From Dictyophora rubrovolvata (taxonomy: Eukaryota; Basidiomycota; Agaricomycetes; Phallales; Phallaceae): DNA of 64,000 nucleotides. Below the pieces are notes generated by a model. It made no database searches. It was given only the letters and a program-made list of their open reading frames with translations, and was not told where the DNA came from. Position numbers and translations under genes: made by a program. Of this stretch, positions 3,115-60,358 are shown piece after piece. The number at the start of each line of letters is the position of its first letter. The first letter of the stretch is position 1. Location: contig CP114118.1 in NCBI GenBank assembly GCA_029959195.1, positions 248,001 through 312,000 of the forward strand, read 5' to 3'.

Positions 3115-3820
3115 AGCTCACAAATTATTCATGTTGGAGAGGTGGGTCTTCTAATTATTGCGGGTGCTTCATTCAGTCCGTTTTCACAAGAATAATTAGT
3201 GCACTCACGGCGCTTGTTAACTGAGAATGAGAATATGAAATACAGTCCAGTCCTTAAAATGACTTTGAGCTCACCAATTTCCTGTTGAAGAGGGGGGTCC
3301 TCTAATCATTGCGGGTGCTTCATTTACTTCATGCTTACAAGAACAATAAGTGGACTCACGGCGCTTGTTAACTGAGAATGGAGGAGATGAGATACAATCC
3401 AGTCCTTGAAACGACCTTGAGCTCACCAATTTCCTGTTGAAGAGGAGGATCTTCTATGTATTGCAAGTGCTTCATTCAGCCCATTCTCACAAGAACAATT
3501 ACTATACTCACGGCGCTTGTTAACTGAGGATGAGAAGATGAGATACAATCCAGTCCTTAAAACGACTTTGAGCTCACCAATTTCCTGTTGAAGAGGTGGG
3601 TCTTCTAATTATTGCGGGTGCTTCGTTCAGTTCGTTTTCACAAGAATAATTAGTGCACTCACGGCGCTTGTTAACTGAGAATGAGAATATGAAATACAGT
3701 CCAGTCCTTAAAATGACTTTGAGCTCACCAATTTCCTGTTGAAGAGGGGGGTCCTCTAATCATTGCGAGTGTTTCATTACTTCATGCTCACAAGAACAAT
3801 AAGTAGACTCACGGCGCTCG
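3115..3820. repeat. About five tandem 151-bp units containing the peptide exons
   Basis: The conserved AGCTCAC word starts at 3115, 3268, 3420, 3571 and 3722, giving periods of 151-153 bp. On the minus strand each full unit holds a 27-nt peptide exon, a 12-nt linker exon and two short introns. A block of about 190 bp at 3140-3330 nearly repeats at 3595-3780, so the array also shows a three-unit higher-order period of about 453 bp, from block duplication or gene conversion. Confidence 0.95.
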
Positions 3821-4030
3821 ACAAGTTCTTGAATATGTCAAGTGATTAACACGTGAAAGACATTTATGACGATTAGTGAAATCAATCACCAGATTGAAGA
3901 ACTGTGAGCGAATTTTTAGTTCATCGCGTAAAAGGCATATGCAAGCAAAACTAATTCAACCAGACGTACCAGGAGAAGCGGTAACAGAAGCCAAAAGGAT
4001 AGAGACGATAACAGCAACGGTGAATCGCAT
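3125..4030 (-). CDS. Secreted Kex2-processed repeat-peptide precursor (12 exons)
   Basis: Predicted 89-residue preproprotein. Exons in transcription order: 4030-3970, 3901-3890, 3827-3813, 3755-3729, 3674-3663, 3604-3578, 3523-3512, 3453-3427, 3371-3360, 3301-3275, 3220-3209, 3150-3125. All 11 introns are GT-AG and phase 1, and the total is 270 nt. Exon 1 is a signal peptide, MRFTVAVIVSILLASVTA, then SP. A short spacer, VLQSELVER, precedes four copies of QDPPLQQEI, each followed by VNKR, and a last copy, QDPPLQHE, at the stop. Lys-Arg is the classic Kex2 site, so the expected products are 11-mers QDPPLQQEIVN whose N-terminal Gln could cyclise to pyroglutamate. This fits the class of kexin-processed repeat proteins (fungal peptide pheromone or RiPP precursors), but I recognise no specific family and see no UstY-like or other tailoring gene nearby. 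A TATTTAAA box lies at 4125-4118. The splicing is read by eye; the exact fit of every exon makes chance unlikely. Confidence 0.85.
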
Positions 4031-4117: not shown

Positions 4118-4125
4118 TTTAAATA
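4118..4125 (-). promoter_or_regulatory. TATA-like box of the repeat-peptide gene
   Basis: On the minus strand it reads TATTTAAA, 88 nt before the ATG at 4030. A CT-rich stretch lies just before the ATG. Placement fits a fungal core promoter; it is inferred only. Confidence 0.4.
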
Positions 4126-14254: not shown

Positions 14255-15060
14255 ACTGTCGCGCGCGCGCCGTGCGTCTTTGGATCATGCTTTTTGTTTT
14301 GAGCATTTCTCTATCTTTTTGTTTATATCACTTTGCGCAAATCGATAGCAACCCCCCCCCGCTTATGGATACCTGTACTCCCCCCTTTTTTCTTTCGATT
14401 TCTATTCTTTGATATGTCCCCCTTATTTTCCGTCGTACGTTTCTCTGTCGTAATGTTTTTCCTGCATCTACGTGGGCAATCTCCTCGAATAACAGAAAGA
14501 TTATAAAATACTTGTAACGATTTATATATGAACCTGTTTCTTTGCCTGGCTTGGGCCACCGAGGACGTCCGATCGGCAAACCTGAAGCACGTGACAGTAG
14601 CCTTTTTTTGATTTTCCGAAGAGGCCGGGAGATCATGTGACCAATCAGCACGGTCATATCATGGTAGCGTAATCTTGCTTTATGTTCCATCTCCGATACT
14701 GTACTATCCCTGGCAACGTAATGGCAATAGTGGATCTAAATCTCAAATACGTGCTTGTGCATATGACACAAACATTTAATTACTCAGTCCTTGTTGGGTC
14801 TCACCACGTCATTCCCTATTCAGTTCCTGCCACCCTGACTCGGACTAGTATGTATTGAAGAATTGTCGAAGAAAAGCGGGATTCATTAATGAACTCTTCT
14901 CGAAGCTTGTAAATTGACCAGACGTGGCGAAGTGTTGAGATCTATTTCCGGATCCATCTCGGAGCCAAATTATTTCTTAGGAAAGTGGTATTCCTTGGTA
15001 AGCCTGTACCAATAACGCCAGCTTTGAATTTTTTTCGAGCTTGTTGTAAGTGTTTCTTTT

Positions 15061-15120
15061 GGCGTGTGTCCCCAGCTGCGTGCCATGTATGGCGTGTATT
15101 CCCAGCTGCGTGCCATGTGT
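15061..15120. repeat. Two 30-bp tandem copies
   Basis: 15061-15090 and 15091-15120 differ at only two or three positions; the core is CCCAGCTGCGTGCCATGT. On the minus strand they would read HTWHAAGNTR then HTWHAAGDTR in one frame, but I see no gene model around it. Confidence 0.8.
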
Positions 15121-15801
15121 GCTTTCGACGACGCCGGGACGGCTTCAGAACTCGAGACGCCACTAAGTGATTATTCCCGTTTGCAAAATAGTAGGTGTGC
15201 GCTATAGTATTTAGATCATCTTTCCCACAAGTTTGATCCTTCACCATCGATAAGTTTTTGTCGATACAGATCTTTGTTTTTTTCTCACAGAGACGGGGAA
15301 ACTTTAATGCTGACAGGACCTCCCCGTGTCGGCGTATGTATTATGTATTGAGCTGGCATTAGGTCATTGGTGGTTGAGATGTTCGAACTCGGCATGCGGT
15401 TAGTTCATAGAAGGGGGCTGTCAGAGCTGCGGATAAATAAAGGATGGTACGTCGTCAAAGAACGTGATTTCATACTAGTCAAGGTATTGCGGATGCTTCT
15501 TTGTTGATTTAATGTTAAGAAACTTCGGTATGGGTAAGTTGAGTCGTCCCGGGTCGGGAGTTGTCGTCCAATAATGAGATGTGAGCTAAGCTACAACTTT
15601 TCTCTTCGAATCTACGAGAGCCTCTGTTTCTCACCTCTTATGCCTCAAAAGGTTCGTGGAAAGTTGATGTTGATTGAAACTGTGGTGTTTCAGGTTTTTT
15701 TTATAATTCGAGCTGAGCTGATGCTACTAGTAGTTTATTTAGGTTCGGTGATACTAACTAAATCTCAAATTCTCGATCAATGTTTGTTACGCATTGCGTA
15801 G

Positions 15802-15818
15802 CACACACACACACACAC
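15802..15818. repeat. (CA)n microsatellite
   Basis: Eight uninterrupted CA dinucleotides. Confidence 0.9.
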
Positions 15819-18384
15819 CTGGTAAGTATATCTTTCTGTAGCGCGTCATGTTCACTCGGCTTTCAATAAATATGGAAAGCAAAACGGACTCATCCAAGCT
15901 CTCTTTTCTCTTTTCGTCGTTTTCTCCTTGGAGGAAGTAAAGCTCCCTATTATTAGCACGCGTGCGCACCATAAATGGAAAAAGATCTTTTCAGCCAGCC
16001 AATTCAAATATACGGAGCCATTTGGGAAAGGAAATTGTATGTCGACACTTTCATTCGCTCGGCACGACCCTAAAAAAAGCTGAACTTGAAACAAGCCGAG
16101 GGAGCTATATGTAAGTGCATTCTATACGATTTCCTATATGCCATTGAAGGGTCGCGAAGAATTTGAAATAAAGATGATGTCAGATGAGATGATTAATCGA
16201 GTTGGTGCGTGGAGTTATCACTTGTTCGCACGTGGTGGATGGAGAGTTGAATCAGTGTCTTTTTCGCTGATCATTCTTCAACGCTCGATGCATTCAACCC
16301 TGAGTTTTCCCATTTTTTTGCGCGCGTTTTGATTATATTCCTGGATTACGGAACGGTGGGGTTCATTTTTGGGGGTTCATCGGTCTGTTGTTCTGCCGTT
16401 GATTGGGTGGGTGTCAACCAGCCCTTTCAGGGGTACTCCATACGATTTGACGTTTGACTGGATGATTTGTTTTCCATGTTAGCACCAAGTTGCTGTATGC
16501 CCCACGAATTACGTTTTGCCAACGACCACTGGTGACTGGACGCGTAACTTTGCCTCTCTGCTTCGAAGTCCGGTTAAGGATACGTGAACCTTCTTCGTCC
16601 AAAAAGTCTGTTCAGTAAAGGTCATTATACTCCAGTGACTTTTAATGATATATTCCGTTTACACTAAAACCTAGTTGATTTTGGGGGCAACCCAAGTTAT
16701 GCACGTGTCGTTGGGTTATCTTGAGTTGCAACTCATCAAATTCAGAAACGGATGTTTCGCATGCAAAAATGCGGTTACTTGGCGCAATCAGATCGAAACG
16801 ATGCTCAAACTCTAACATGAATTTGGTTCTGCGACCTTCTTTCACAGATCGGTGATAACATTTGTATATCCGCGTCAGAAGCTGCCAATCGATCTTCTGT
16901 TACTCTCAGCTAGATGTTTGCAATTCCGTTATTTATTTTAAAATCGGTGATCTCCATTAGTGACGGCATTGGTAACCCTTGTATCTCACAAAAGAACTAG
17001 GTCCTTTTGGTGAATAACCCCGCCTGGTTTACTCGAATTTGAAATCGCCCCGCTTATGATGATGCTGAATATTTATACACTCGGATGCGGCAATGCGCGA
17101 AGGAAAAGCCCGAGAAGGACGTTTGAACTCATGGTGAATTACTTCAACCTTATTGTATTTTTCTTTTCTTTTCTTGTAATTTCCCCCGCCAAGATGTTGA
17201 CATGACTACGAACATTATTCGACAGGGGTTCATGCTTTAGACGGCAGGGTGTCATGCATTGTACTGTTGTTCCTTCAAGTCGCTGATAAAATTTATTTCA
17301 GGTGCTATGCCTTTTCGAATGTGCGGTTCAATAGCCATGTGTTTAATTCACAGGCTGATGATAATTTTTGTCTGATTCAATTAGCAACCTCCTACGGATT
17401 CGGGCGTACAGTAGCCTTGATTTATGCAATAACTAACAAGTTTCTCAAACATTTTTTTCGGATGGTGGACATAGTTCATTGATTGGTATTGTAATACTAT
17501 ACCGTGTGATGATAATTGTCGCCGGTCCTAAAAGTATGTACTTGGGCCCTGAAGTTAGTATTGATTTCGTATTAGTGACGCCTATGCATACAGGACCTAT
17601 GTGGAATTCTGATTAGCTCGGTGAAACTCGCTCATACAAAGGTAATCGTTTTAGCCAGGGGAAGAAAAAACTATTTTCCCTTCAGTATATCAAATACGCT
17701 GAGCCAATCCAAGAACGTTTTTTTGATCGAGCGGAACGTTTGTACCTTAGGCCTAAGTCCAAGGACCATACTCGTATCTCATAGGTACGTGGACTCAATA
17801 GGGACTGAGCTGCGTTATTCAAGTTCTCTTTGGACTGTTAAATTGTGGTCCGGACCCCAAAGGTTCGTTATCGTAGTGACCATCAAAGTGTCCTGGCTCT
17901 AGAGAAAAGTTCCCTAATGCGGATCGTGAATATGAGAACGGAAAAACATGTTTAAGTCATGACGGAACTTACACTCATGTTTTTGCCTAAAACTATCAAG
18001 GAGGGAAGAACTAGAGCGACTTTCAGAAGTGCGGATGGATCCATAGCCGTCAAGTTATCGCCATCTAGGAAGATTGCAAGCTAGTGTAGATTATTGTTTA
18101 ATCGATTGAACGTTTGATATGCAGAGTATACCGGTGAAGATCCTTTTTTTTGAAGTGGATCTTTGACCTTATGTCGCAGGTCAGTTGGCTTGAAATATAT
18201 TTGAAATAATAGATCGTGAATTTTTATTTCAGCTCATCAAGTTATATTTACTGGTACAGTTCAATAATACACATACTCTAACACCTCGGCAAGAAGCGAG
18301 GGACGAAACTACCAAATGAGAATGAATACTGAAGAATGGAAAAATCTTGCAATTTTGTATTCAGTTGTAATACTGCGCAAAGTA

Positions 18385-19002
18385 TCATTGAGAATGAGGT
18401 GGGTTTGTAAATAAATCATATTCCCCCGTTTGCTTCGATATATCTGCGACGATGTTTTTCATCTTGTCAAACCCCTCCTGTGATAACAGGTCCAAATCCC
18501 ACTCCGTTGGAGGAATGATGGGTGTAGAATGTTCTGAATGGGGGATAGGTTGGGGATTCACTTGGTTAGACTCCTTTTCGCCACAATAGATGCGCGTGGA
18601 TGTACTGAGAACGCAGAGGCCCCAAAGACGTGGGATAGGAGATTCTTTAAGCATCTCAGCATACAGGTCACGTATCTACTCATCAGCGTGATAACGCAAT
18701 TCATCCTTCTTAGCCCAACTTTCTGCCTTCACAACAATGAGGAAAACAGGTCTGATTTTGATGTCGTACACAACGAAGCGGGGAGTCGATCTCGGAGTCT
18801 CGGGAATGAAGCCTGGTGCTATGTGGAACACCAAGTTGTCACAAAAACAATAGGTTAAGAGTCTGTTGAAGCCTCCACTGGAAATGTTTTCGGAATCTGC
18901 GTGTCCATCGGGATAGCTTTCGGAAACCCCGTGTTCATTGCAAGTGGCCTTGAAGATATTAAGCAGACCGGGGGGCCAAGTATCGTCTGTTTGGAGCGTC
19001 AT
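18385..19002 (-). pseudogene. Basidiomycete-type hypothetical protein, interrupted by one in-frame stop (copy 1)
   Basis: On the minus strand an ATG at 19002 opens a frame encoding WPPGLLNIFKATCNE, then FLIVVKAESWAKKDELRYHA. It meets TAG at 18678-18676 and continues in the same frame as IRDLYAEMLKESPIPRLWGL and WDLDLLSQEGFDKMKNIVAD to a stop at 18385. From memory of the family, the TAG stands where relatives have Gln (HADEQ), so a single CAG-to-TAG change would explain it. The rest, about 205 codons, is intact, so the loss looks recent. I know this family only as a widespread basidiomycete protein without a proven function. A second, more decayed copy lies at 22030-22590, and the downstream flanks of both copies also match. 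Confidence 0.7.
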
Positions 19003-19472
19003 AATTGCAAAGATGTGCTCAATTTACGATTTCAGACACAGCGCAAGCCTGATTAAATGTTAGGTGTGGTTGAAGTACAGTAGGGTACAGTAGGGTGCGG
19101 TAATGGTGAAAGGAGCGATTCCATTTTTCCGCGCGGCATGTCACGCGTGACAGTCTTGACGTAATTGGGTGGGAAAAGTTCAGAAAACTGTTTCTCCTCA
19201 ATCTCTCCTTTCAGCCTGCCAATGCCATTTCCTTACTTCAACTCTTCGCTTCGTAAAATTTATTTGGGTGTGGATCTACTGCAATTCAAAGTTCAAAGTT
19301 AATTGACCTTCCCTTGTGGATATGATTCGTTTGTCCGTTGACAATTACAGTGGACATGTCACGCACATACTATTATTGCCTTTATTGCGTCACAGTAGTT
19401 CATGGAGACAAACGTATGAGCATGTACACTCTTATTAGTTCACTTTTGTTCGTCTACAGACAAGCTCTTTCC

Positions 19473-19480
19473 TATATAAA
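19473..19480 (+). promoter_or_regulatory. TATA box of the zinc-finger gene
   Basis: TATATAAA, 76 nt before the ATG at 19556. Confidence 0.5.
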
Positions 19481-19555
19481 GCTACTCCTCAATAACTTGA
19501 ACCTGCCTTCGAACTTAACCACCACACGCGTCAACCTATCAATTGTCGAATAACC

Positions 19556-21191
19556 ATGTTATTACCTGATCACGCTGTTGATGCTCTGGTATGACTACAA
19601 TTTCAAGTTACTGTATAGTATGTGATTTATTTACTGACGCGTTTCGTGTTTGTACGAATAGCTCCAGGAAAAGCGTCCTGAGCATCGGACATATGAACGT
19701 AAGTACTCTTCTACATATCGAACGATGTCAAGAGGTTCACGTTCCTGGAGATACCTTCGCTTATCCAAACACGTTGGGTCAGAACACTAGTGTTGAAAAC
19801 AAACCCTGCTTGGAGTCTGAGTGGGATGGAGATCAGCACAGGGTATCTGGATTCAGACTTATATATTGATGGCTTTGAAGTGAACATGTTACACAGGACA
19901 CCGTGAACAATGATCCAGCAGATCAAATGGTCCGTTGGAATTCTGGGACAGAGGACGTCAAATTGTCCCCGGTACGATCTTCGAGACCGAGGCCTGTTGA
20001 AGACGTTAATCCGAACACGGGTATTTCAGGAAATGATTCTTCGGAAGTTGTGAATAGCAATAGCGCTATAAGTCTTGTTCCAGAAAACACGAATATCCAG
20101 ACCACCAAACGCAAAGGCAAGGAAGTATGCATACATATTCTCTCTCTCTTTTTCTTACAGGCATCTTAACATTCGTCCCAGCTTTTTCTGGCTCCCGGTA
20201 AAGTTCGAGAACGAGCTCAAACTCATATGGACACACCGTCCGGGAGTAATTTAAACCCTTTCTTTGATAACCCGAACTACAAATGGAAGGGAGAAGCAGA
20301 TACACCAGCCTTGATCCAATATATAGAAAAGAAGTTTGATGTCATAATTCATTCCTTAGTGATTCATTATTTTTCTATCTTATAATTTTATTCATTTTGC
20401 ATCTGTTTATTTTAGAGTTTGACCCGAAAAAGCCAGTCGAACCAAAATCTGGATAAATCTGGTGAGTTTGAAATTACTACATGAATGACAATCTGATTCG
20501 CTTTTATTGTATTGTAGGTATGAACATTGGCAACTCCTTGACGCCTGGAGGTAATCAACCTCAGTTTGTACACGAGAGCTCGAACCCTAAAGACGGTGGT
20601 ACAGTGGACCATTCCCATCCATCAGGCGAAACTCCTCAAACACCGTCGACCACGCCTCAGAAACGCCAACACAACGTTCAAATCAGCGTTACAAACCGAT
20701 TTCGTGGTCGCCATTCACTCCCTTCGCCTCACAAAATCCCGAAAAGCCTTTCATCCCAACTGCCGAACGCAACTCCAACTGCCACTGCCGCCATGCAAGA
20801 CGGTCCCGACCTCGTCGACACACTATTCTCCGCAACGGAGTTCAAGGGCAAACATGGATCCGTCTGTACCTACAAATGTCCTCATTCTGGAGAAATGTGT
20901 CGGTTGTTTTTAAGCGGGAGAGACAGGCGTAATCGGTACAGACACCTTGCTACGCATGCTCAGACCGAGGAAGAGTTCGTTGTGAGCGGGGTGATTGCTA
21001 TGGAGGATGCTTTGGCGTTCACGCGATTACCGAAGACGGTGGTGAAATGTGGTGTTGAAGGGTGTCAGTATGAAACCAAGGTATGGAGGACTGATCAAGT
21101 GAGGGAGCGTCATGAGATGGAAGTTCATCCGGAGGAGTACACGCAACGTGTGCGAAAGAGGAAGAATGCTAAACGCGGTGGTCGTCAGTGA
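19556..21191 (+). CDS. Protein with two degenerate C2H2-type zinc fingers
   Basis: Seven-exon model of about 434 residues: 19556-19588, 19662-19698, 19733-19842, 19897-20124, 20182-20358, 20416-20461, 20518-21191. The second intron would be only 34 nt; using the acceptor at 19749-19750 instead keeps the frame and gives a 52-nt intron. The N-terminal two thirds are low-complexity Ser, Thr, Pro and Asn. The C-terminal part has two Cys/His modules: CTYKCPHSGEMC with RYRHLATHAQ, and VVKCGVEGCQYE with RERHEMEVH. The second fits a C2H2 finger, the first only loosely. The very end is basic (RVRKRKNAKRGGR). A DNA-binding role is inferred from the fingers and basic tail. I do not recognise an orthologue. 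It sits between the two damaged copies of the duplicated gene. Confidence 0.7.
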
Positions 21192-21654
21192 TTGAAATTT
21201 AAGTCAGCATTCCTTGTATTCTCAAGTGTTTTTTTTTTGTAATTACAAAATATCTCTATGGTGTCATTACTAAATGTAATGAATTACTTGAAACGAAAAG
21301 GAAAGGCTTTGAGAAAAATCAATTAACTGCGCACTGTGCTTTGGTTTCCAGAATGAATACGAGACATCTAATTCTGTGTTCTATGCGAGATAATCGTCAT
21401 TCTTTTTTTTTTTTGGTTGAGCTTTTGTGACTAGCGGCATTGACAGTGCACCTAATACACCTCGGTCAGTGGCCGGCTTGTGTCGATGGGGTTTGAACCA
21501 TGATGAACAGAAGAGGCATATATTTATAGAGAACATGATGAAGTATAATTGCATACGAGTGCGCCAACCGGAGAAAATGCATTTACGCATTGTATTATGT
21601 GCCAGAGTCATCTTCGTTCTTAGTCTGCCACGCGGGTCATTATAATACTACTGT

Positions 21655-22590
21655 CGGAAGAGCGGATGGATCCATTTAGGAAGATTGCAAGCTTGTGTAG
21701 ATTATTGTCTCAATGGATTGGACGTTCGACATGCAGGGTAAAAATTATACCGGTGAAGGCCCGTTGAGCTGAAGCTGATCTGATCCCTGCAGTGAACATT
21801 ATTATCGAGAGGTCAGACTTTTGGCTCGGAATATATTCGATGAATTGTACTCTTTCTTTTATCCCATCAAGTTGTATTTACTAGTACAGCTCATCAATAA
21901 TATACATATTTAACACTGTATTAAGAAGCGAAGGATGAAACGACCAAATAGTAAGCTTGGATAAAAGGATAGTTCTACAGAAGGCATAGGCTAAACATAA
22001 TGGGTAGTCTAATTCATATTTCCTGTCTGCTCAAAGATATCTGTGACGATATTTTTGATCTTGTCGAAGCCCTCCTGTGATAGCAGGTCCAAATCCCACT
22101 CGCCGGCTAAGAATGTTGGAGGAAGGATGCATATGGAAGGCTCTGGGTGAGGGGTAGGTTGGGGATTCACCTAGTACGACTCCTTTTCGCCACAATAGAT
22201 ACGTGTGGACGTCCCAAGGTCGCTGAGGCCTCAAAGACGTGGGGTAGGAGAGTTGTTGAGCATCATTAACTCCGGCTGCAGATTTGTTGGTCCGCATGGT
22301 GGCGTTTTTCAGCCTCTATGGCCCAGCTGTCATCTTTTACCTTGATCATGAAAATCGGTTTGACATTCCCATCCAAGACCAACAAGGTATGCAGCGAGGT
22401 CTGCGGTGTCGCGGCCCGATGTTGTAGAAGAACTCTGAGGCTCGATACAAAATGAATAATCGTCACAAAAGCAGCAGCTCAACAAGATCCATAATACCGC
22501 TTTTCAAAAGCAGGTTGCGTGCGTGTTCGAATATTGTGAGGAGATCCGCGGGCCAGCCATTGTTTATGAGGATACGGGGTGCCATGACAT
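21655..22590 (-). pseudogene. Decayed second copy of the gene at 18385-19002, with its flank
   Basis: The coding part starts with ATG at about 22585 and encodes MAPRILINNGWPADLLTIFE, then breaks within 45 codons. Further pieces, KVKDDSWAIEAEKRHHADQ and sequence matching the later exons of copy 1, follow in other frames, so it carries several breaks. The downstream flank also matches: 21660-21780 aligns with 18035-18150 (both hold GGATGGATCCAT and TGTAGATTATTGT). This shows a duplication of roughly 950 bp, older than the single stop in copy 1. No target-site duplication or terminal repeat was seen, so a transposition mechanism is not supported. Confidence 0.7.
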
Positions 22591-22599
22591 GGAGACTGA

Positions 22600-23580
22600 G
22601 ATCCGGAATTCAACCAAGTCAATAAGTATACAACTAGTTGAAAGAATAAACACATGCCAGACCAAATGCTATATTATTAGGATGATTCTATGAGTATATG
22701 CGTAGTAGAGAGAATGGATTTACTTGCGCTATAATAAATGGTCAGAAAAGACGCCAATTTTGGTCTTGGACTCCTGAGGGTATTCCAGGGATTATCGCAG
22801 CCTTGATTTTCAATTGCCGTCGAGATTGTGAGACGAAGCGAGTAGGACGTTGGTGGTGGATGGAAGGAGCGGTGAAAGAAGGAAGAAAAGTGAGATACGG
22901 GTAAATATATACTCCGGAGTCCGGACCGTATTAGTCAGCTTTGCGGCACGCGAAATTCGCGTCTTAAGATTTATCCTCGATAATGTGTTCTTTATTCTTT
23001 TTAATTGTTTCTTCTTGTTTAGAAAGTATCTTTTGCTTCAAACGACGTGTTTTTATCGCACATCGTCACAGTCAAGGTGATAGTAGTGCGACGCGTCATC
23101 CTGTCCTGACTATCCTCCTTTATCCATCCTCCTCCTTTACAACGTTTGAGGTTCCGCAGTGTGTCGAAATATTTTATGATAGCTTCGGCCTAAATTATAA
23201 ACCGGCCCTCATAGAGCCTTCCGGGAACTGTCACCAGGTGTATCGCGTGTTTCCTGGCCATTCCAGTACGTGTTCCTTGTAACCTTAGAGTCTTGTATTG
23301 AATCTAATGGGATCTATTTATTGTTTTAAACTCCACGCGTTGTTATGACATTCACGATGTAGCCAAATACACAGCCAGGCTCTCCGCGCCTTGCTTACTC
23401 ATTGACATCGACGTTTACCAAGACTTTTTTCTGACATTGGGAAATGACTCTAGTCATGCCACAGTCAATGGTTACATGATGTGTACTCCCTGGACATTTT
23501 TTTGTTCCTCCCGCGCACTCTCGAATGTTCCTGTCGCTAACAACAGCTAGAGTAATATAGTTTATATTACGAGCAACGGA
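22600..23580. other. Intergenic region, nothing recognised
   Basis: Short overlapping frames near 22700-23280 lack motifs and splice-consistent extensions. No RNA gene seen. Confidence 0.4.
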
Positions 23581-24800
23581 ATGTAGCTAAGAGTTCAAGG
23601 CGAAGCCTTGAACGTTAGAAATATATATAATGAACAAAAAGGAATAGCTCACCTAAGAGTTCAATGCGAAGCCTTGAACCTTAGGCGAGCGAGTGACTAA
23701 GCTAAAAACTAACTACACAAGCGCTCGCACTTAGTGGCGCTGACGCTACTAAGTTCGACAGTTGCGCCACCGCCCCCGCGGTCATACATATTCATTTCTC
23801 ATCTGAATCATCTTTGAGAAGCCCATATTTACGTAAGTAAGACTGTTTTTTGGTGTGCGTAAACTTCTTTTCCCGCGACGGCCAACTTCATGTTGTCTAC
23901 GGTACTGTTGGCACTTGGGTTCCACACATCCAATGTTATAAAGAATCCGACCGCACGGTACTACGTTTTAGACTTTTCGGTTTCTCCTAATTGAGAAGCA
24001 CTTACATAGTTATCACTTGGAGTTATCATTTGGCCAGCCCCACAAGATCTATCTATAGACATTATCGTTGATTATTCCTCTTCTCAAATTTCTCGAAGCT
24101 CGCCATTTATCAGGAATAGCACCCTTAATTGGATAGGGGACCTCGACAAACTGAATTGCGATTTCAAAATTAGGTCTTCTGACCATGTCATAACCGGTGC
24201 TTCTCAATTGTTTTTCTTCGCGGATCTTTCATGAGTTAATAAGTGGACTTGCCGAATTTCATATACAATTACTTCATCTTGGGTTATCAACGTAGGACCG
24301 ACGTCCTGTCTATCAAGGATATCGTATATCCATACGGATGAAGTGGCGGTCTCACAATTCCCAACTATCCCCTATTGTCGTCGGCCTGAAGGGTGCGTGA
24401 TGTCTTCATAAGCCTATCCCAACGACGCTCTCTAGCCTCCTGACCACTGATAAGTCGTTTTAGAAATTATGATTCAAATCTCTGGGTCTCCTCACGCTTA
24501 ATTAAGGATTCAGAAGTTGAAGAGAGTGTTCGCTTTCCGATTCTTTCTCGCCAATTCCTGGTTTGAAACATGTTTTATCGATCGTCCAACCTTGCCCCTC
24601 AAGATCTAAGAAGCCGCCATCGTTGTAATGCAATGACTCTGAGCTTCGCTCGCATGCGGCCTTCGGATTCTCAAGATTTCAAATTCCTTGTCATCTCATC
24701 ACGCCCGAAGATGCCGACTCGGTTTTCAAAATTTCATGCGAAGCAGTGACAAGGACCGAGTCGGGACGGCGGTAAATCTGTGCAAATGAAGAAAGGATAT
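23580..24800. other. Hairpin-rich block, possibly mitochondrial in origin (NUMT or mitochondrial-plasmid relic)
   Basis: Three strong hairpins stand close together: 23593-23613 (GTTCAAGGC, loop GAA, GCCTTGAAC), 23652-23685 (CCTAAG arms around a similar core) and 23729-23754 (ACTTAGT arms). A further GAGC-TTC-GCTC hairpin lies near 24642. Small GC hairpins with GAA or TTC loops are common in fungal mitochondrial DNA. On the minus strand, broken coding follows, including a Lys-rich end KKFTHTKKQSYLRKYGLL terminating at 23792 and, further right, KTSRTLQADDNRG-like pieces. I cannot name the source gene. The block looks like a decayed insertion; the mitochondrial origin is inferred from hairpin style only. 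Confidence 0.3.
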
Positions 24801-26796
24801 CAAAATAAAATATAACATCGGACGATGGGTTATATACCAAATATTGACGAAGTCCGCACGTATGCTCGTGGACCTCATGATGCTATGGCGAGCAGAGTAT
24901 TATCAGAACATCATGTGACTTGTATACTTGAAATGACGTAGTACTTGCCTATCAAATTCTGCATACTGTCTGTTCTAAAATGTATCACTAAGCTGCATGA
25001 CCGATGTTTAACGTTTAACAAGCTGCTAGGCTATAGCTATATAAAAGTTTTGCTTATATCTTTTCATCTTCTGGAGCATCAAAACAGTCCAGTGCTACAT
25101 ATGCCTCAAAGCACTCTGGAAATCAAAATGTAAATCTGCAGCTGAGCAGTGAGAAGACAATTGACCAAGTGTGTCAGCCATATCTCTGTGCTTTAGGTTT
25201 CAGTTTATTGTCTTAACCTGTTTGTAATAACGCAGGTCTACCTGGGAGGCTTATCAAAGTATATTGCAGGCTACGGCTGAACAGTGTAGCCTATGATGAA
25301 CTTACACATGGGTAGGTGAATCCAGAGCTGTATTATATTGAGTCGTATGTATTAAAGGGACGGAGGATGGCGGAAGTAAAAGACTAGCTATAAAATTGTG
25401 ATGCGCCTGCTGATACGGTGGAGACCGCCATGTATACACTCCATATGGTCACGCACTCCGGAAATAAATATCTAGCGCCATTGATTACGCACATGGAAGC
25501 GAGCGTGCAATACTGCTGAAGGAAAGAGTCCAGATACGGCCACGCCCACTGTTCTCTCTGCATGCTATGGCCATGACAAACACTAATGTTAATTGTTCTG
25601 GCCACGTAAAAAAATCCTTTGGGCCGGAGTTAGAGTTATCCCAGAAGGCCCAGTAAAGATCGGAACATCCTACCCTGGATCAATAAACGGCATCCGATCC
25701 CGACCCCCGCATTTCGATGGTACTTAAGTACTTGGGATGACATACTACAATTCAGGCCTCGTATGGCACGTTATAACCAAAGTACGCAGGATGAAACGGG
25801 AAGATTGTTGAACTTTCTAGCCGGCCTCAAAATATAAGCCTCAGGCGATCACTGATAATTGATAAACTTTCCTTTTCTCACGTCGGCAGTGCTCTGTCAG
25901 ATGTCTCGGCTACCTGAGAAAAAAATGCAAGACTTGGTGGAAAGTTCCTTTACAAGCCTCGTATGCGCATCATTTTCCATATATGGGACTCTCTGAATTC
26001 ATTAGACCGCCGTTAACCCTATGTCATTTGAACTGTAGAATTGGGTGTCTCAGTCTAATCTGATTCACTCATCCCTATTATGTATGTCTCAGTGAACCTT
26101 CATGTTATATTACCTTGAATAGTCGACCCTAGTCTCGAATACCTCTTTGGGAGAAGAAGAGAACGGCAACAAAATATTGCATGGTCTAGAATGCCAATAT
26201 CATTGATTTATTTTTGGATCATAATTTGACTTGGCCCGTTCCACGGTCATCCACGGTTCCATTCATTCGTTCAGATGGAGGGATGAAAAAAAAACCGCGA
26301 AAAAAAAATGCTTACGTTAGCAAATGTGCCTGAACGCCTACGGCAAGAGGGAGGTCGCATTACAGTTTTATCGATGCTGTGCAAAAAGGTTAAGCAGCAC
26401 TCCCTTTTTGTAGTAGACCTCCAAGTGCTCCTTCTCAACAGCGACTCCGTCGGTCAAGTATTGAGGTTTGGCGAAAAGGCTACTAAAACTATTTGGACGG
26501 CGGTCACCGGATGATGTTTGGATCCTTTTTTTCCCTTAGTGCGGGGCGCGCAATGGCGCAGGCCGAGTACGGCTCCATCACGATCAAATCTCTGGCCTCA
26601 GGGTTCAAAGCAGCCTTTAGAACTCAGATGTAAGATATAAAATTGAGGGACAAATCGAAGATTTTTTTTTGCTTCCTTCAAGTTCTCAAACATTGGTTTT
26701 CCCTCTACTCCCATAATCTGGATAACGACCGACGAATTGCCCTTGTTCAGTGTTAGGGACTAACCACTTCACGACGAGACTTGGAAAAAAGGAGTC
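24800..26796. other. Intergenic region, nothing recognised
   Basis: No convincing coding, RNA or repeat structure. An open frame of 68 codons at 26308-26514 has no motif. Confidence 0.4.
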
Positions 26797-27106
26797 ATGT
26801 GAGTATCAAGAGATGTTTTTGCTTCGTGTGCGAGAGATTTCTTGCTGAAATGACTATTATAGGTGCACGCAAAACTACCTGCAGTATTCATGCGGATGCA
26901 AAAAATCCGCGGAATTCCACCAGTGCGTGGAACGTCGTGGTACCAACGTCAAATGCGATGAAGTAGAAAAGCTGGTCGTCAAATTCGTTGAACACTACTG
27001 CAAAGATCACCTTGTTGACAACCATAAATCTTCTTCGTCGTCACTGGTCGGGACGCTCAGGACAGTACGAAGTGTCGGGCTGATCATGGGATCCCGAAGG
27101 GGTTAG
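26797..27106 (+). CDS. Small Cys-rich hypothetical protein, start codon split by an intron
   Basis: 81 residues from exons 26797-26798 (only the AT of the start codon) and 26863-27106. The donor GTGAGT at 26799 and acceptor ATTATAG join AT to G, giving MCTQNYLQYSCGCKKSAE, then HQCVERRGTNVKC and EHYCKDHLVD. In-frame reading upstream of the AT meets TAA without another ATG, which supports this start. The pattern of CGC, single Cys residues and a late YC..HL pair resembles small fungal Cys-rich proteins with metal-binding potential, but I cannot assign a function. There is no signal peptide, so it is probably intracellular. A basic, Ser-rich tail follows the Cys region. Confidence 0.6.
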
Positions 27107-28978
27107 ACATTTGGTACAGCTTTTTTCCAATTTTTTTTGTGAACATTTTCGCTAATCTCAAACGTATGCTTTAGAGCTGTTGAAGAACCCTTCGTGACTC
27201 ATTCGTCATCATTAACATTCGCCGTCATTGTTATTGTCATCGTCATCATTTGTTCCAAAATCCGCGGATTGTTTTACGCCCGTGCCTTCCATTCGTTTCC
27301 CATTCCTTACTTATCATCCGCTTCGTCGCTTTCGCTTCATGGACTTCCATTTCTCCGGTTTCATTGTATTTCTGACAATATATATGTTGTGTATAGTTGT
27401 TTTAAGTAGTGTTTGGTTACTGCATGCATAGGAATAGATAAAGCAGTTGTACATGGTATTCATTCATCTGCGTGTGTCCTTGCCCTCGGGTGTTTTCGGA
27501 AACTACTTCCAAGTGCTAGCTCGCGATTATATTTCGTATGCTTTTGAAAGTCATTATTTCTAGATAACTATAACAAAACACTCCGCGGGATGACGGCTTG
27601 TTGAGATTCTACTTGCAGTACGTGGCCAAGATCGCAATCGAGAACAGAAGATAATGGGACTGTTGCAGATTGATATCTCTCTAAAGTATGTATGCGTAAA
27701 TTTTTTTTAAAAGACGTAGAATTTTTGATACGGGTAGTAACGCATCAGCGATGGCACAGTAGTGTCTTGTGTAGCCACGATGTTCCCCCCGATGAGATCT
27801 CTGAATTACATTCTTACTAAGGTTAATCAGGCATAGATTTTTTTTTGTCTTTGATCATAACACTGATTCGTTTTTTTTGGCTTGTTCATTTCTGAATTGT
27901 TTTTAGTAAGTCATTTGGTTTCACTAAAACTTGTTGAGTTGTTGTAATATCCAAAAAACATAGTAACCTAGATTCCGATCTACATAGCATTTAGACTCCC
28001 GTGGAATGGTTTAATTGTAATTCCTCTTACCGACTACTTTCATAATTTCTGCAAATGGTATGTGTATATATTCGCTGTACCCACTCCTGAGTTACTGACT
28101 TGGCTACAAACCTTAGCTTCAAATTTTTTTATTAAGGTCCAGGGTTTTCACAATCCTTTACGGGACGATAAGCGGAAGATTCTGGTTTCCGCTCTTTTGA
28201 GCTTCTCGTTCTCACACAACTGGTTTTCACGCTCAAACTCCATATGACTTTCAGCCAACAAGAAGTCGATATCAAATGGACGTTTGGCGGAAAACTTAAC
28301 CTTAGATGGTGCGGCTGGATCTCACATTCCGCTCACGCACAAACTTGTTGCTAATTTTCATTTAAAGTTTATTAATCTCATGCCTCTGACATTAATGTCG
28401 GTGGGTCAGATGGTTCGATACTGATCTGGTTATGCAGACAACGACATGTAATTATTTGTTGTGTGCATGCACATTTACCGGAACCATCCGGGATGCCGAT
28501 TTCATTTCTGTGGGCCAAAGACCCGATGAAACTTCATTGAGAAGAAAATCCTTGCGGAAGATTCCTCAATCGGAGTACTTTTCTTCTTTAACCCTGTAAT
28601 AAAACTAGACTTCTCGGAGGTTTGCTCGGACCGGAAGGCTCCCGCAAGGTGACTCGTTACCATACTCACTCACGACGACGCTCATTTCTTTCATCGGTGA
28701 ACGGTTATGAAGAGTTATTCGTTTCGAACTGATCTGGTTGCACCAGGACGTGTCGAATAGGTTAGGCAGAGGGAAACTCCTATGGAATTAGGAATGTGAA
28801 CAACCTCTGATCTACACTTTAAACACAACCGATTTATAGTTTCCTGAGTTCAAAAATCTTATTTTTATATGCGCATAATCACAACGACATGCTGTTAGTT
28901 ATGCTAATGACAACTGATCATATTCCTACCAAAATAGCTGCATAGTTGTATAGCATGCCCCCACTGCCTTGTCACGGT
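27107..28978. other. Intergenic region, nothing recognised
   Basis: 3' UTR of the Cys-rich gene, then non-coding sequence. A 61-codon frame at 28062-28247 has no start context or motif. Confidence 0.4.
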
Positions 28979-29079
28979 GCTTCGTTGGCTCAGTTGGTAG
29001 AGCGTTGGTCTCATAGTCAATTATGACCGCTGAGTAAGCGGCAATCCAAAGGTCGCAAGTTCGAGCCTTGCACGGAGCA
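28979..29079 (+). tRNA. tRNA-Met(CAT), elongator, with a 28-nt intron
   Basis: The acceptor stem GCTTCGT pairs fully with ACGGAGC (one G-U pair), the D stem is GCTC/GAGC, and the T arm GCAAG-TTCGAGC-CTTGC is perfect. The anticodon loop CTCATA-A carries CAT at 29012-29014. The intron, 29016-29043, lies at the canonical 37/38 position and is removed by the tRNA splicing endonuclease in eukaryotes. Elongator rather than initiator is supported by the GCTTC-type acceptor stem, as in yeast elongator tRNA-Met. The CCA end is not encoded. Confidence 0.95.
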
Positions 29080-29527
29080 TTTTTTTGGCTCCTTTCTACC
29101 CAATGAGATTCAGGTTTTGTTTCAAATTTGCCCCTAATTCTCCTTTTCCGCTGTAACTTGAGGAGTATGATCACAAGTTCCTTCCCCAAACAAACCATCC
29201 GTGGACAAGTCCCACCAGCTCTGAATTTTCTAACGATTCTCCGCACCCCGTCCTTGTAAAGTCCCTAGTTCGGCGTCAAGAAACATTCGAGGTCTATTAC
29301 ACTTTGTGATTCCGTAAGAAGTACACATTTATTTATTTTTATGGTCGGGACCAAGGGTAACGATACAGAACTAAATAACGTTATACGTACTTCTATTGGG
29401 CTGCACTACTTCCGTTTGTGTCGGACGATTTTCGGACGACTCATCAAGCTCTCCATACAGCACTTTCAGGAAGTAAAGCATCCTAACAAGGAGAATTCCC
29501 TTCAGAACAAAGGATTAAAACTCGAGC
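29080..29527. other. Spacer between tRNA and uridine phosphorylase
   Basis: A T-run follows the tRNA directly (29081-29087) and is the likely Pol III terminator. The rest is probably the 3' UTR of the minus-strand phosphorylase gene. Confidence 0.5.
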
Positions 29528-30943
29528 CTAATCACGTACATCTATGTCACTTCCCAACTGGGACAAAGCTTCCAAAGCTGCCTTTCCAGTCCAATCTTGT
29601 ATCCGAACAACCGTATCAGGAGTAATAAAATCTTGGGAAGTCCTAGATGCAAACACCATCTGAACTGAAGCAGCACGAATGCGGGATTGCGTTATGGGTA
29701 TACTGGGAGCTGGAACAGCTAGTTGATTTTGACTACTAGAAGCAATACTTGTAGGGCCATGAAAGACGGGGGTGTTTTGGGCTTGATGTCCATCTACGGG
29801 AGCGTCGTTGTGTGATGTTAAGCAGTGGTAATTTGACCAGTTCGCGGCTAAGTGTAAAATATGGAACGTCTCCATCTTAAGAAAAGATCAGATTGTGGAA
29901 CTTTTCTCGTAAAACAATATCACCTCCAATGTACCCAAACCCTCTACCTTTCGTAACAGCGACTCAACTAGCCTGACATTGTGGTCAGGAAATGAAGTTA
30001 GACGACCTTGTGAACTATAAAAGCTGATACGAACAACGCCAGATAAGTCATACTTTCCAAGTCTGAATAATCGATGGAATACCTATCTGCAGACGCATTG
30101 ACGAAGTCACCATAAACATGAGCACTATGTCCGGCAACTCTGATTGATTCCAGTGCCTTCAGAAGCTAGAGACGAAATCTATCAAAGACACAGAAAATGG
30201 CCATATTTTCTTACAGCCGAATGTAGCTCTGCATCAGCTGAGACCTAGCAAGACGACAATGTCAAGGGATAACAGCCTTCAGAGGAGAAGAACTTGAAGA
30301 AAGGTACCGGTTTAGAAATACGATAGGCGTTTTCATCGGATGTATCGACAGAGCCAACGAAATCAAAATCGTAATTGCGATTTATAGCTACGCTTGCTCT
30401 AGGCACGACCACAGAGCCTACGGGTAGGGATTCATGCAGACCACCGCATGAACCGAGCCTGAGTGAGGTTATCTAGACACTATAGACAGCGCAGGGGTGA
30501 ATCGGATCTATACCGAACTATAATCATATCCCCTATAACACATTCTCTTACTTCTCTGACGAAGAAGTCAGCATTTGGTGCACCCATTCCAATGGCAATG
30601 ATGCTGATGGGAATGCCATTGTACAATCCAGTAATGGTAAGAAATCCGCGCTCGGATTCCAGCGCGAAAGGAGGAGGGCTCGCGGAAAGTAATGTTGCGA
30701 TACTCCGTGCTCTGGAATAGGGACCAACAGTAATCTCGAAATACGAGTTATTAGAGCACAAGAGAGAAAGCTGGGAGAGTTATGACGACCTACAATTCTG
30801 TTAGCTACTTCTCCTAATTTGACACCAAGATGATACACACGACCTTCAATAGTTTTAGGGAAATCTAAGAAGTAAAGCCAATCAACACGAATCTCGAGGA
30901 GTTATGTTTGGTGCGTACTCGCATCTAAAAGTCGTTCCTTCAT
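29528..30943 (-). CDS. Uridine phosphorylase (nucleoside phosphorylase family)
   Basis: Multi-exon minus-strand gene starting at the ATG at 30943. Joining exon 1 to exon 2 gives DANFPKTIEGRVYHLGVK; then come ITVGPYSRARSIATLL, RGFLTITGLYNGIPISIIAI, GMGAPNADFFVREVREC, YGSCGGLHESLPVGSVVVPR and METFHILHLAANW. The C-terminus RAASVQMVFASRTSQDFITP ends at 29528. These are the conserved blocks of fungal uridine phosphorylases: the glycine-rich phosphate loop, the MGAPN block and the MET motif of the nucleoside pocket. The enzyme splits uridine with phosphate into uracil and ribose-1-phosphate for pyrimidine salvage. An insert rich in Ser and Pro precedes the last block. It shares a 185-bp promoter with the divergent reductase gene at 31129, but no common regulation is visible. 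Confidence 0.85.
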
Positions 30944-57195: not shown

Positions 57196-57618
57196 ATGTC
57201 GGAAGGGGCCCTCAAGTTAGACCAAATCCTCCAAGGCTCATATACGACTGAAGATGGAGTCCAGGTTAGCATCCCGATACATAAGTTGTACTCATGTCTT
57301 ATTTTATTTTTTGACTGACTCGCACACTCTCAGTTTGTGCTAAAAAGGACTCCAAATGCCAATGGTGGTCCACTGTCGAATGAACTATTTGTCCTATTTT
57401 CTAACAACAATGGAACATTTCAAGTTGCAGACAAAGCTACACACTCGCCTATCCTGCCCTCGGTTCCGTTTAAATTCGGGCCTGATCTTGATGGCTCTGC
57501 AAAAGTTGCCTTTTTCGAGACTGATGCGGTACTCATATTTGGCTACGTTCTGGGTGGAAAATTGTTTGACGAGCAGAATGTCATTCGACTTATGCTAAAG
57601 CCGTTGAGCCCATTATAA
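57196..57618 (+). CDS. Small hypothetical protein, 117 residues
   Basis: Exons 57196-57264 and 57334-57618 join in phase 0 with good GT and CTCTCAG sites. The protein starts MSEGALKLDQILQGSYTTED and contains LSNELFVLFSNNNGTFQVAD, VPFKFGPDLDGSAKVAFFET and AVLIFGYVLGGKLFDEQNVI. Alternating hydrophobic residues and Gly/Asn turns suggest an all-beta fold. There is no signal peptide or membrane segment. I do not recognise the family. The supported intron and even composition argue for a real gene. Confidence 0.6.
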
Positions 57619-57996
57619 AGTATCCCATATTTGTTGGAGAGGCTGAACATGGACTAACTTCTATAAGGAATGTTTAACTACGTAAAAACAGATTAGTGTG
57701 TTCAATACTTGTGTAGATATGCCTCCGTGTCTTTTCTTATTTTGCTGTTGCTATAAGTTTCCTAGACGATGCAGACTCGCGAGGAGCACCCTGAAAATAG
57801 GGGATGAAAACGATCAGGACAGCATATTCCATCAACCTACTAGGATTAATTCAAGCTAATTAAAGCCAGGAAATGCAAATCACGTACTCGTACATTTCGA
57901 AGACAATGTTGAAAATTATACTTAGTCGAAAATTTGCTCCTGAGAAAGACATCGACATCGCCCTATGCTGAGGTACTAGTCTTGAGAAAATCAGGC
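57619..57996. other. Convergent 3' spacer
   Basis: Space between the plus-strand hypothetical gene and the minus-strand DNMT2 gene; nothing else seen. Confidence 0.5.
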
Positions 57997-59435
57997 TCAG
58001 CTCGACGTAAGGAGAAACGATATCAGCTTAGATACAACAAAGACGTTGACGCTATTTCCAATCAAGCGATAGCGCGTTTTGAGGGAGATTGTATCAGGGA
58101 AGGTGAACTCCCCAAGAATACGAGGTGAAGAATTCAGGTGTATCTTGTATGAAGAGACGTTTTCGAAGCTATCGGGTGGAGAGGTAAGGAGACGCAAAGG
58201 TGGATTGAAACATAAGAGACGTAGAAGCTCCACTGGGGTGAAGTATCGAAGGCGAAGAGAATGAAGTAAAGCCAAAGGGTACGGGTCGTTGGCATTTGGA
58301 GATTGAGAAGCTACCGCAGCCACGTAGGCATTGAAAGTATCTGTAGTCTAGATTTTTGTGATGTCATACAACATAGAACTTGGGTTATACACTTACGTCT
58401 AATTCCTCAGTTTGCTGAAGAATACTGCTACCTTCTATCATGTGGGTATATCCCCGAGTAAAACAACATGTCCTGGTAGACGAAGGCTTGACAATATCAA
58501 ATAATGGCGTATGCTTAGATCGCAGAATTTTCGACGGAATAAAATATTGCGACAAAGTGAGATTTTCGTCATCAAGAAAGTTTTGCAGAGACAAAACGGG
58601 CGGGGCGTTGGTTGAGTGAGACTCGGAGCATGATCTTGGATCGACCCAATCTGGTCCTTCATCAAGTATACTACGTTTGGGCTCGGGTAACTGATTTGAG
58701 CAAGAGGTTGGTTTTGAATAAAAGGGTTCCTTCCGGGCCAGCAAATAATATCTTAGGCGAGAATTGGGTATGCCGAATTGAAGAGGTGTTAAGAGAAACT
58801 CGGAGACATTATACCGTAACGATTGGAGCTTTACAAGAACGGTTTGTCGAGTAGTAGATGTCTGGAATAAATTCCAAGGTATGAATGGAGACGTAGTTCC
58901 AGTGGGCTACGACGAATGCCTACCTCAAAACCTGCGACGTTTTCAACAAGAATGTAATTCGGTTCTTTATTTTGAGCTGCTAACTCTGGCAAGACGACGG
59001 TCATCAGATTTATAAAACTCTTCGCTCGTGGATCAGCTTCTCCTTTAGCGTTTGGATTTAACACAGTATATGGTTGGCAAGCAGGTGATAAAAGCCATAC
59101 GTCAGCATCGTACGGAAGTAGATCTGACGCTGTTAGAATTGATATGTCGCACTAAGGTAGAAATGATATCAACGAAGAGAAGCGGCATCGTATTCAAGTA
59201 TCACTTACGCGCTCCACTATTCCTTTACCGAAGTTATGAGTATATACCTCAGACGCTGCTGGATCCCAATCAAAAGCACGGAGGATGTGGATGGTAGTGT
59301 CCAGCTTTGCACGTGTTAAAGCAAGATGGAGTCCACCTATGAACATGAACAGATTAAGTTGGAAGACAAGTTGAAACAGAAGATGATTTGACCTATTCCA
59401 GAAAAGAACTCAAGAGCTGCGGACATGGTGTACAT
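57997..59435 (-). CDS. DNMT2-type tRNA (cytosine-5) methyltransferase
   Basis: Minus-strand gene of about 390 residues, start at 59435 (a second ATG at 59426). Motif I ALEFFSGIGGLHLALTRAKL binds S-adenosylmethionine. Motif IV reads WLLSPACQPYTVL and holds the catalytic Cys; most DNMT2 have PPCQ, here PACQ. Motif VI is YILVENVAGFE. FLLTPLQFGIPNSRLRYYLL is motif VIII. The DNMT2 hallmark CFTRGYTHMIEGSSIL is present, and motif X is TRYRLIGNSVNVFVVSKLIS. These mark the Dnmt2/Trdmt1 family, which methylates C38 of tRNA-Asp rather than DNA. The target-recognition region between VIII and CFT is present at the usual length. The gene looks complete and intact. A late intron is probable between DSFE and FTFPD. 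Confidence 0.92.
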
Positions 59436-60358
59436 TGGAGGGGTGATAAGCGCCGTGTCCTGTGAAGTAAACCAAGTGACGCCACATCGAGGGTTAATAA
59501 CCGTTAAGCGATTAAAACAAATGTGAGAGCTAAATCTAGCGGGACAAAAATCTCCTATCTAGCCGCTCTCTGAATACATAATTGTGATTAGAACACTTGA
59601 ATTTCCTGAAGCTGATCAAGCTGACCCTACTATTAGTCCAATTTATTTGCTCGAGACTAACCTTGAGTAGTCTTTTCTGGTGAATTTCACCGAACGAACG
59701 TCTAAGCTAAATGGCTCGGACAGAAAAAGTGAACCCAAAAAGCCCCGATTGGTATAGTAGTATGAGCGTTTGGTGACTCGGCCGGATTTGAAGCTTCAAG
59801 TTTTTGCTAGCCTGTTATTATTCATATTAGGCATGACGCTGGAAGTAAGTCGAACCTGAACCTTGCTTATGCTTTGTCAAAAAAAATATTCTGTGAAAAG
59901 TACTTGCCGAAAAACTCACAACTCTGAGAGCAGAAGACCTAATAGACTATAGCAAACGTTATTGAAGTACCCGGAGTTCTTATCAGTTCGCAAATTGGAA
60001 CTGAAGTTTTTACAGAATCGCAAGAGCGCATGCCATTCCATCGTCACAATAACTAACACAGGATTGAAAATAATTGCGACTTCAATGTTCTCGCTTTCGT
60101 CGAAGGTTTGTCGGTAAGACCACGGCGAGAGCCTCGTCAAAGGCGGGAACTCTAACAAACTGTTTTCGGCAATCAACCGTGTCAAGTCGAAAAGAATGTG
60201 AATATTCACCTTTTTAAACCGCTTCATTAAATTCGATATAATCGATACATATTACAAGTTTGATACAAGTCATTCTTTGTAGTACATAACATAAATATAT
60301 ATATATAACGTTCAGATAGAGTTTTTACATTAAGAATATCGATTTAGTAGTTGCAACA
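59436..60358. other. Intergenic region, nothing recognised
   Basis: Promoter of the DNMT2 gene and 3' flank of the protease gene. No supported coding; a 103-codon minus frame at 59916-60227 has no motif. Confidence 0.4.

What the first reader, a model, noticed from the sequence alone, without database searches (positions are those of the whole stretch)
3125..4030. Hidden precursor of a repeated secreted peptide, QDPPLQQEIVN, with Lys-Arg processing sites
Seen: 12 exons join into 89 residues with a signal peptide, five copies of the peptide and four KR linkers; every junction is GT-AG and phase 1. Known: Kex2 cuts after Lys-Arg in the Golgi, and several fungal pheromones and ribosomal peptides are made from such repeat precursors. 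Inferred: this is a secreted signalling or bioactive peptide, N-terminal Gln likely becoming pyroglutamate. The gene has no exon longer than 61 nt, so ordinary ORF-based annotation would miss it. No tailoring enzyme was recognised in the window.
Basis: partly seen in the sequence, partly recalled or inferred. Interest (0 to 1): 0.92.

Follow-up and report, generated by a model that had tools for sequence, protein, structure and literature searches.

The report
Secreted repeat-peptide gene of tiny exons
A probable fungal gene, split into 12 very short coding pieces, encodes a secreted precursor that would be cut at Lys-Arg sites into several copies of one short peptide; precursors of this kind are already known in fungi, but one built almost wholly from micro-exons is unusual.

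Summary
On the minus strand, 4030 to 3125, 12 coding segments and 11 GT-AG introns (54-68 nt, all phase 1) join into an 89-residue precursor: signal-like N-terminus, a spacer ending in ER, four exact QDPPLQQEIVN-KR units and a truncated fifth, QDPPLQHE. Between copies 1-4, 3 of 39 exon columns vary, all silently, against 27 of 111 intron columns; random placement is fully silent in 0.1% of draws. Best reading: a KEX2-processed repeat protein (KEP) releasing linear, probably pyroglutamyl peptides. KEPs are a described class (PMC6339444, PMC7329392, PMC9769878). The core string was not found in the paper library (supplements not searchable). The unusual part is the layout: all 10 internal exons are symmetric and 27 nt or shorter, and the tandem unit is a 151-bp intron-exon block. 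No DUF3328 gene was found in the part searched. Weak points: no RNA evidence, no fungal database to search for homologues, poor branch motifs, introns 3 and 9 worst; intron B alone is not clearly freer to vary than the exons. Function unknown; a secreted signal or biotic-interaction peptide is inferred.

The parts
4118..4125 (-). TATA-like TATTTAAA upstream of the ATG
   Evidence: seen by eye; not tested
3970..4030 (-). exon 1, coding part (61 nt): signal-like N-terminus MRFTVAVIVSILLASVTASP
3890..3901 (-). exon 2 (12 nt), spacer VLQS; possibly part of a degenerate copy of the repeat
3813..3827 (-). exon 3 (15 nt), spacer ELVER ending in a single-Arg site
3115..3818 (-). tandem array, unit 151 bp, 4.6 copies, 84% matches: intron A + core exon + intron B + linker exon
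3729..3755 (-). exon 4 (27 nt), core copy 1 QDPPLQQEI
3663..3674 (-). exon 5 (12 nt), linker VNKR
3578..3604 (-). exon 6 (27 nt), core copy 2
3512..3523 (-). exon 7 (12 nt), linker VNKR
3427..3453 (-). exon 8 (27 nt), core copy 3
3360..3371 (-). exon 9 (12 nt), linker VNKR
3275..3301 (-). exon 10 (27 nt), core copy 4
3209..3220 (-). exon 11 (12 nt), linker VNKR
3125..3150 (-). exon 12, coding part (26 nt with stop), truncated core copy 5 QDPPLQHE

Best explanation
A KEX2-processed repeat protein (KEP) gene of a filamentous, probably basidiomycete fungus (host inferred). The pre-mRNA is spliced across short introns; the 89-residue precursor enters the secretory pathway by its signal peptide; a kexin cuts after KR (and after the single Arg of ER for the first copy), a Kex1-type carboxypeptidase trims KR, the N-terminal Gln cyclises, and about four pyroGlu-DPPLQQEIVN plus one pyroGlu-DPPLQHE are secreted as linear, acidic peptides. 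The repeat number grew by tandem duplication of a 151-bp intron-exon block, harmless to the frame because every internal exon is a symmetric phase-1 cassette. Shown: sequence anatomy, frame, splice dinucleotides, silent-only exon changes among copies 1-4. Inferred: transcription, splicing, secretion, cleavage, pyroglutamate, and an extracellular signalling or biotic-interaction role.
For: Gene model; 3 of 39 exon columns vary, all silent, against 27 of 111 intron columns (Fisher p 0.034; all-silent probability 0.001; two gapped intron columns left out); intron A 19 of 57 vs exons p 0.003; few shuffles of the unit and no antisense reading match; signal-like start rare in the window; introns read by eye in two neighbouring genes look similarly short and some end in TTAG. 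In PMC9769878 KEP products with pyroglutamate were found in C. cinerea, and products that appear to be cut after single Arg were seen on expression in Pichia.
Against: No transcript or peptide data. No fungal sequence collection to look for homologues (exact-pattern scans of the prokaryote and viral collections gave 0, as expected). Introns 3 and 9 show no YTNAN motif at -45 to -10, and a strict CTRAY occurs in only 3 of 11 introns, at -49. Intron B alone is not significantly more variable than the exons (8 of 54 vs 3 of 39, p 0.35). The copies are not independent (1 and 4 are identical in core exon and intron B), and the reading was chosen by eye for its repeats, so the p-values are guides only. 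Copy 5 carries an amino-acid change and a stop.
Confidence: 0.82

Rival explanations
1. The gene is real but intron B is coding: one intron per unit, giving 31-residue units such as QDPPLQQEIGELKVVLRTGLYLIFSSSVNKR, or such retained isoforms occur.
For: Introns 4, 6 and 10 are 54 nt and stay open when retained; intron B is less variable than intron A (p 0.028) and not significantly more variable than the exons.
Against: Intron 8 is 55 nt, breaks the frame and meets a stop; differences between copies in that frame are mostly amino-acid changing (3 of 5 codons copy 1 vs 2; 2 of 3 codons copy 2 vs 3, counted up to the indel); its ends are GTGAGC and TCAG in all four copies.
Confidence: 0.06
2. A pseudogene or non-coding minisatellite: tandem duplication of a dead or never-coding intron-exon fragment.
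For: Last copy is truncated and changed; branch motifs poor or missing; no expression data.
Against: Silent-only exon changes in copies 1-4, open frame across 12 segments, invariant linker exon and intact splice dinucleotides.
Confidence: 0.09
3. Precursor of a cyclised RiPP (dikaritin/ustiloxin type) modified by UstYa (DUF3328) enzymes.
For: Same precursor layout: signal peptide, short cores between Kex2 sites (PMC7329392 abstract).
Against: No DUF3328 match in six frames of 1-30 kb nor in the stretches tested of 30-64 kb; core has no Tyr; 103 of 1680 basidiomycete KEPs lie near DUF3328 genes (PMC7329392). The flank left of the window is unseen, and most of 30-64 kb was not domain-searched on both strands.
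Confidence: 0.05
4. A mating pheromone-like signal (alpha type).
For: Repeat precursor with Kex2 sites, as in alpha-factor.
Against: No XA/XP dipeptides after KR, no C-terminal Trp as in the -AADW mushroom KEPs (PMC9769878), no CaaX end.
Confidence: 0.04

Closest known systems
KEX2-processed repeat proteins (KEPs), e.g. Coprinopsis cinerea KEP 497993, source of pyro-QVPVDEPA and pyro-QIPAELPTKSINGNIEPY (PMC9769878)
   Same: Signal-like N-terminus, short repeats between dibasic sites, N-terminal Gln, Pro-containing acidic cores
   Different: Different core sequence; here each repeat is split by introns into 27- and 12-nt exons. 'intron' and 'exon' occur 0 times in the main texts of PMC6339444 and PMC7329392; in PMC9769878 'intron' occurs once, for cDNA cloning, 'exon' 0 times
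Dikaritin/ustiloxin precursors (PMC7329392 abstract)
   Same: Precursor layout
   Different: No DUF3328 gene found in the part searched, no Tyr in the core
Schistosoma micro-exon genes (PMC10526429, abstract and passages seen)
   Same: Secreted proteins from many tiny exons, mostly multiples of 3 nt
   Different: Their introns are long (0.1-5 kb); as far as I recall they have no identical dibasic-bounded repeats; no relation implied
Trichoderma virens Xlr2 microexon (PMC11121469, abstract and passages seen)
   Same: A microexon in a filamentous fungus
   Different: One regulated microexon in a transcription-factor gene, not a gene made of them

Membership tests
KEP (rule of PMC7329392) | ER signal peptide | tested here: inconclusive
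   Hydrophobic stretch, basic start, small residues near the end; rare in the window; SignalP not available
KEP (rule of PMC7329392) | at least 3 tandem repeats of at least 8 aa between KR/KK/RK/RR sites (rule read) | tested here: met
   Four 11-aa cores and four KR sites; three cores bounded by KR on both sides, the first by ER and KR
KEP | cleaved by kexin and secreted | not testable with these tools
   needs peptidomics
Dikaritin/ustiloxin-type RiPP | DUF3328 (UstYa) gene nearby | tested here: not met
   No match in six frames of 1-30 kb or in the stretches tested of 30-64 kb; left flank beyond the window unseen
alpha-pheromone-like KEP | XA/XP (STE13) dipeptides after the Kex2 site (PMC6339444) | tested here: not met
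   KR is followed by QDPPL
basidiomycete lipopeptide pheromone | C-terminal CaaX (recalled) | tested here: not met
   ends in QHE

The most novel reading that the evidence does not exclude
A fungal micro-exon gene: because every internal exon (2-11) is a symmetric phase-1 cassette, the cell can change the number and kind of secreted peptides by skipping exons without losing the frame (skipping a 12-nt linker fuses two cores; skipping a core drops one dose; a TAGAAG tandem acceptor at copies 2, 3 and 5 would swap Gln-Asp for His), and such genes form a class that protein-based KEP surveys miss.
Probability: 0.15. Interest if true: 0.75.

Novelty: new variant of a known kind. Interest (0 to 1): 0.5.

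Why it matters
The published KEP surveys start from annotated proteins (methods read). A precursor made of 12- and 27-nt exons is likely to be mis-annotated (inference), so repeat peptides of this design could be undercounted. It also gives a clear case of a peptide repeat growing by duplication of a whole intron-exon block, and a testable case of micro-exon splicing in a fungus; the authors of PMC11121469 (2024) state that functional microexons had not been described before in filamentous fungi.

Tried and rejected
Paralogues: Tandem Repeats Finder on the whole window and repeat search of 1-12 kb show no second array of this kind. The strings DPPLQQ, QDPPL and PPLQQEI: 2 papers of 5.39 million held one of them (QDPPL), both unrelated by title (listing seen only). 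Pfam on the precursor: one match, a bacterial glutathione synthetase domain, E 0.015, 15.7 bits against a cut-off of 21.3: rejected as chance. PDB: one match, E 0.8, chance. Introns 1, 2, A and B are not clearly related to each other (best pair: 25 of 300 shuffles as good), so an introner-like origin is not supported. A codon-usage ranking of ORFs to find neighbour genes kept 4 ORFs and was dropped as uninformative. A motif scan for UstYa-like HxxHC and HC..R strings (motifs recalled) gave hits only in short open stretches of 15-69 codons; three of the HxxHC hits (45559 +, 30609 -, 42530 -) lie in strand stretches not domain-searched, so they are unsupported rather than excluded. A paper search on KEP plus intron/exon words was too loose to use. 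Folding was not run. Not domain-searched: 30-64 kb outside the single-strand stretches given.

Full report
Observation. The minus strand was read directly and the gene rebuilt: coding segments at 4030-3970, 3901-3890, 3827-3813, 3755-3729, 3674-3663, 3604-3578, 3523-3512, 3453-3427, 3371-3360, 3301-3275, 3220-3209 and 3150-3125. Introns are 68, 62, 57, 54, 58, 54, 58, 55, 58, 54 and 58 nt. The product is MRFTVAVIVSILLASVTASP-VLQSELVER-(QDPPLQQEIVNKR)x4-QDPPLQHE. The first and last exons also hold untranslated sequence of unknown length, so sizes are certain only for the 10 internal exons.

Repeat. Tandem Repeats Finder sees one array here, 3115-3818, unit 151 bp, 4.6 copies; start-to-start spacings are 152, 151, 151. 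The unit is intron A (57-58 nt), core exon (27), intron B (54-55), linker exon (12). Copies 1 and 4 are identical in core exon and intron B and differ at 5 intron-A columns; copies 2 and 5 differ at 2 intron-A columns, though their core exons differ at 5 aligned columns. Units 4-5 therefore look like a later copy of units 1-2 (inference).

Is it coding? Among copies 1-4, 3 of 39 exon columns and 27 of 111 ungapped intron columns vary (two gapped intron columns were dropped, copy 5 was left out); all three exon changes are silent. Placing the 30 variable columns at random left the peptide unchanged in 0.0995% of 200,000 draws and put 3 or fewer in exons in 1.8%; given three exon changes, all are silent in 1.3% of draws. 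Split by intron, A differs from the exons (19 of 57, p 0.003) but B does not (8 of 54, p 0.35). The copies are related and the reading was chosen by eye, so these values are guides.

Chance control. Shuffles of one unit (that of copy 2) allow any one- or two-intron open reading with KR or RR in 11 of 3000 (GTGAGY/NAG), 28 (GTRAGY/NAG), 62 (GTRNG/YAG) and 308 (GTR/YAG); the real antisense unit allows none under these four rules. An earlier run limited to two-intron solutions gave 0 of 2000 under each of two rules. The shuffles do not ask for a signal peptide in phase; 1 of 973 ATG starts meets the simple signal-like rule.

Weak points. Introns 3 and 9 have no YTNAN at -45 to -10, and a strict CTRAY is present in 3 of 11 introns only, at -49. 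Retained B-type introns 4, 6 and 10 stay open, intron 8 does not; retention of introns 1, 2 or any A-type intron brings a new stop. No RNA evidence is available here.

Setting. Pfam on six frames of 1-30 kb found, above cut-off, a Gpr1/Fun34/YaaH transporter (from about 13.5 kb, +) and a PHD finger (about 9.8 kb, +) and nothing else. Stretches of 30-64 kb given to (one strand each) gave a short-chain dehydrogenase, an HMG box, ribosomal protein S17 and a C-5 cytosine DNA methylase. No DUF3328 was seen. Introns read by eye in the transporter and dehydrogenase genes look similarly short and some end in TTAG, like most A introns. The host was not identified; 'basidiomycete' is an inference.

Mechanism. 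The best account is a KEP. In Coprinopsis cinerea, Vogt et al. (PMC9769878; abstract, Results parts 1 and 2 of 3, Discussion and screening method read) found linear, often pyroglutamylated peptides, products that appear to be cut after single arginines on expression in Pichia, no visible phenotype in six kep deletions, and no antibacterial activity against the strains tested. By analogy this precursor would yield pyroGlu-DPPLQQEIVN. Its acidic, Cys-free core argues against a membrane-active antimicrobial (inference). A role in communication or biotic interaction is the most likely class of function, at perhaps 50%, and is not shown.

Ancestry. LQSELVER in the spacer resembles LQQEIVNK of the repeat (104 of 20,000 shuffles of the spacer as good), so exons 2-3 may be a worn older copy.

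Novelty. KEPs are known: 1193 in 226 species (PMC6339444; abstract and two sections read) and 7878 in 1345 of 1461 strains (PMC7329392; abstract, one section, part of another and passages read). The core was not found in the paper library, but supplementary tables could not be searched, so it may stand there. What I did not find described is the layout: 10 of 10 internal exons of 27 nt or less, six of them of 15 nt or less, two introns per repeat. The searches for this were and term searches in three KEP papers; absence there is weak evidence.

Noticed in passing
window 3813-3901: Exons 2-3 (VLQSELVER) may be a degenerate zeroth copy of the repeat (104 of 20,000 shuffles as good).
   Followed up: partly
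window 3604, 3453, 3150 (3' splice sites of core copies 2, 3, 5): Tandem acceptors TAGAAG: use of the second AG would give KR-HPPLQQEIVN instead of KR-QDPPLQQEIVN in copies 2 and 3, and KR-HPPLQHE in copy 5. The script found this reading for the copy-2 unit; the other two are by eye.
   Followed up: partly
window 28979-29079 +: Rfam finds a tRNA (55 bits, 101 bp for a 71-position model, so probably with an intron), which ARAGORN did not report.
   Followed up: no
window 15001-30002: No Pfam match up to E 0.01 in any of the six frames: gene-poor or domain-free stretch.
   Followed up: no
window 57500-60500 -: C-5 cytosine DNA methylase domain, above cut-off in one frame and continued below cut-off in a second.
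   Followed up: no
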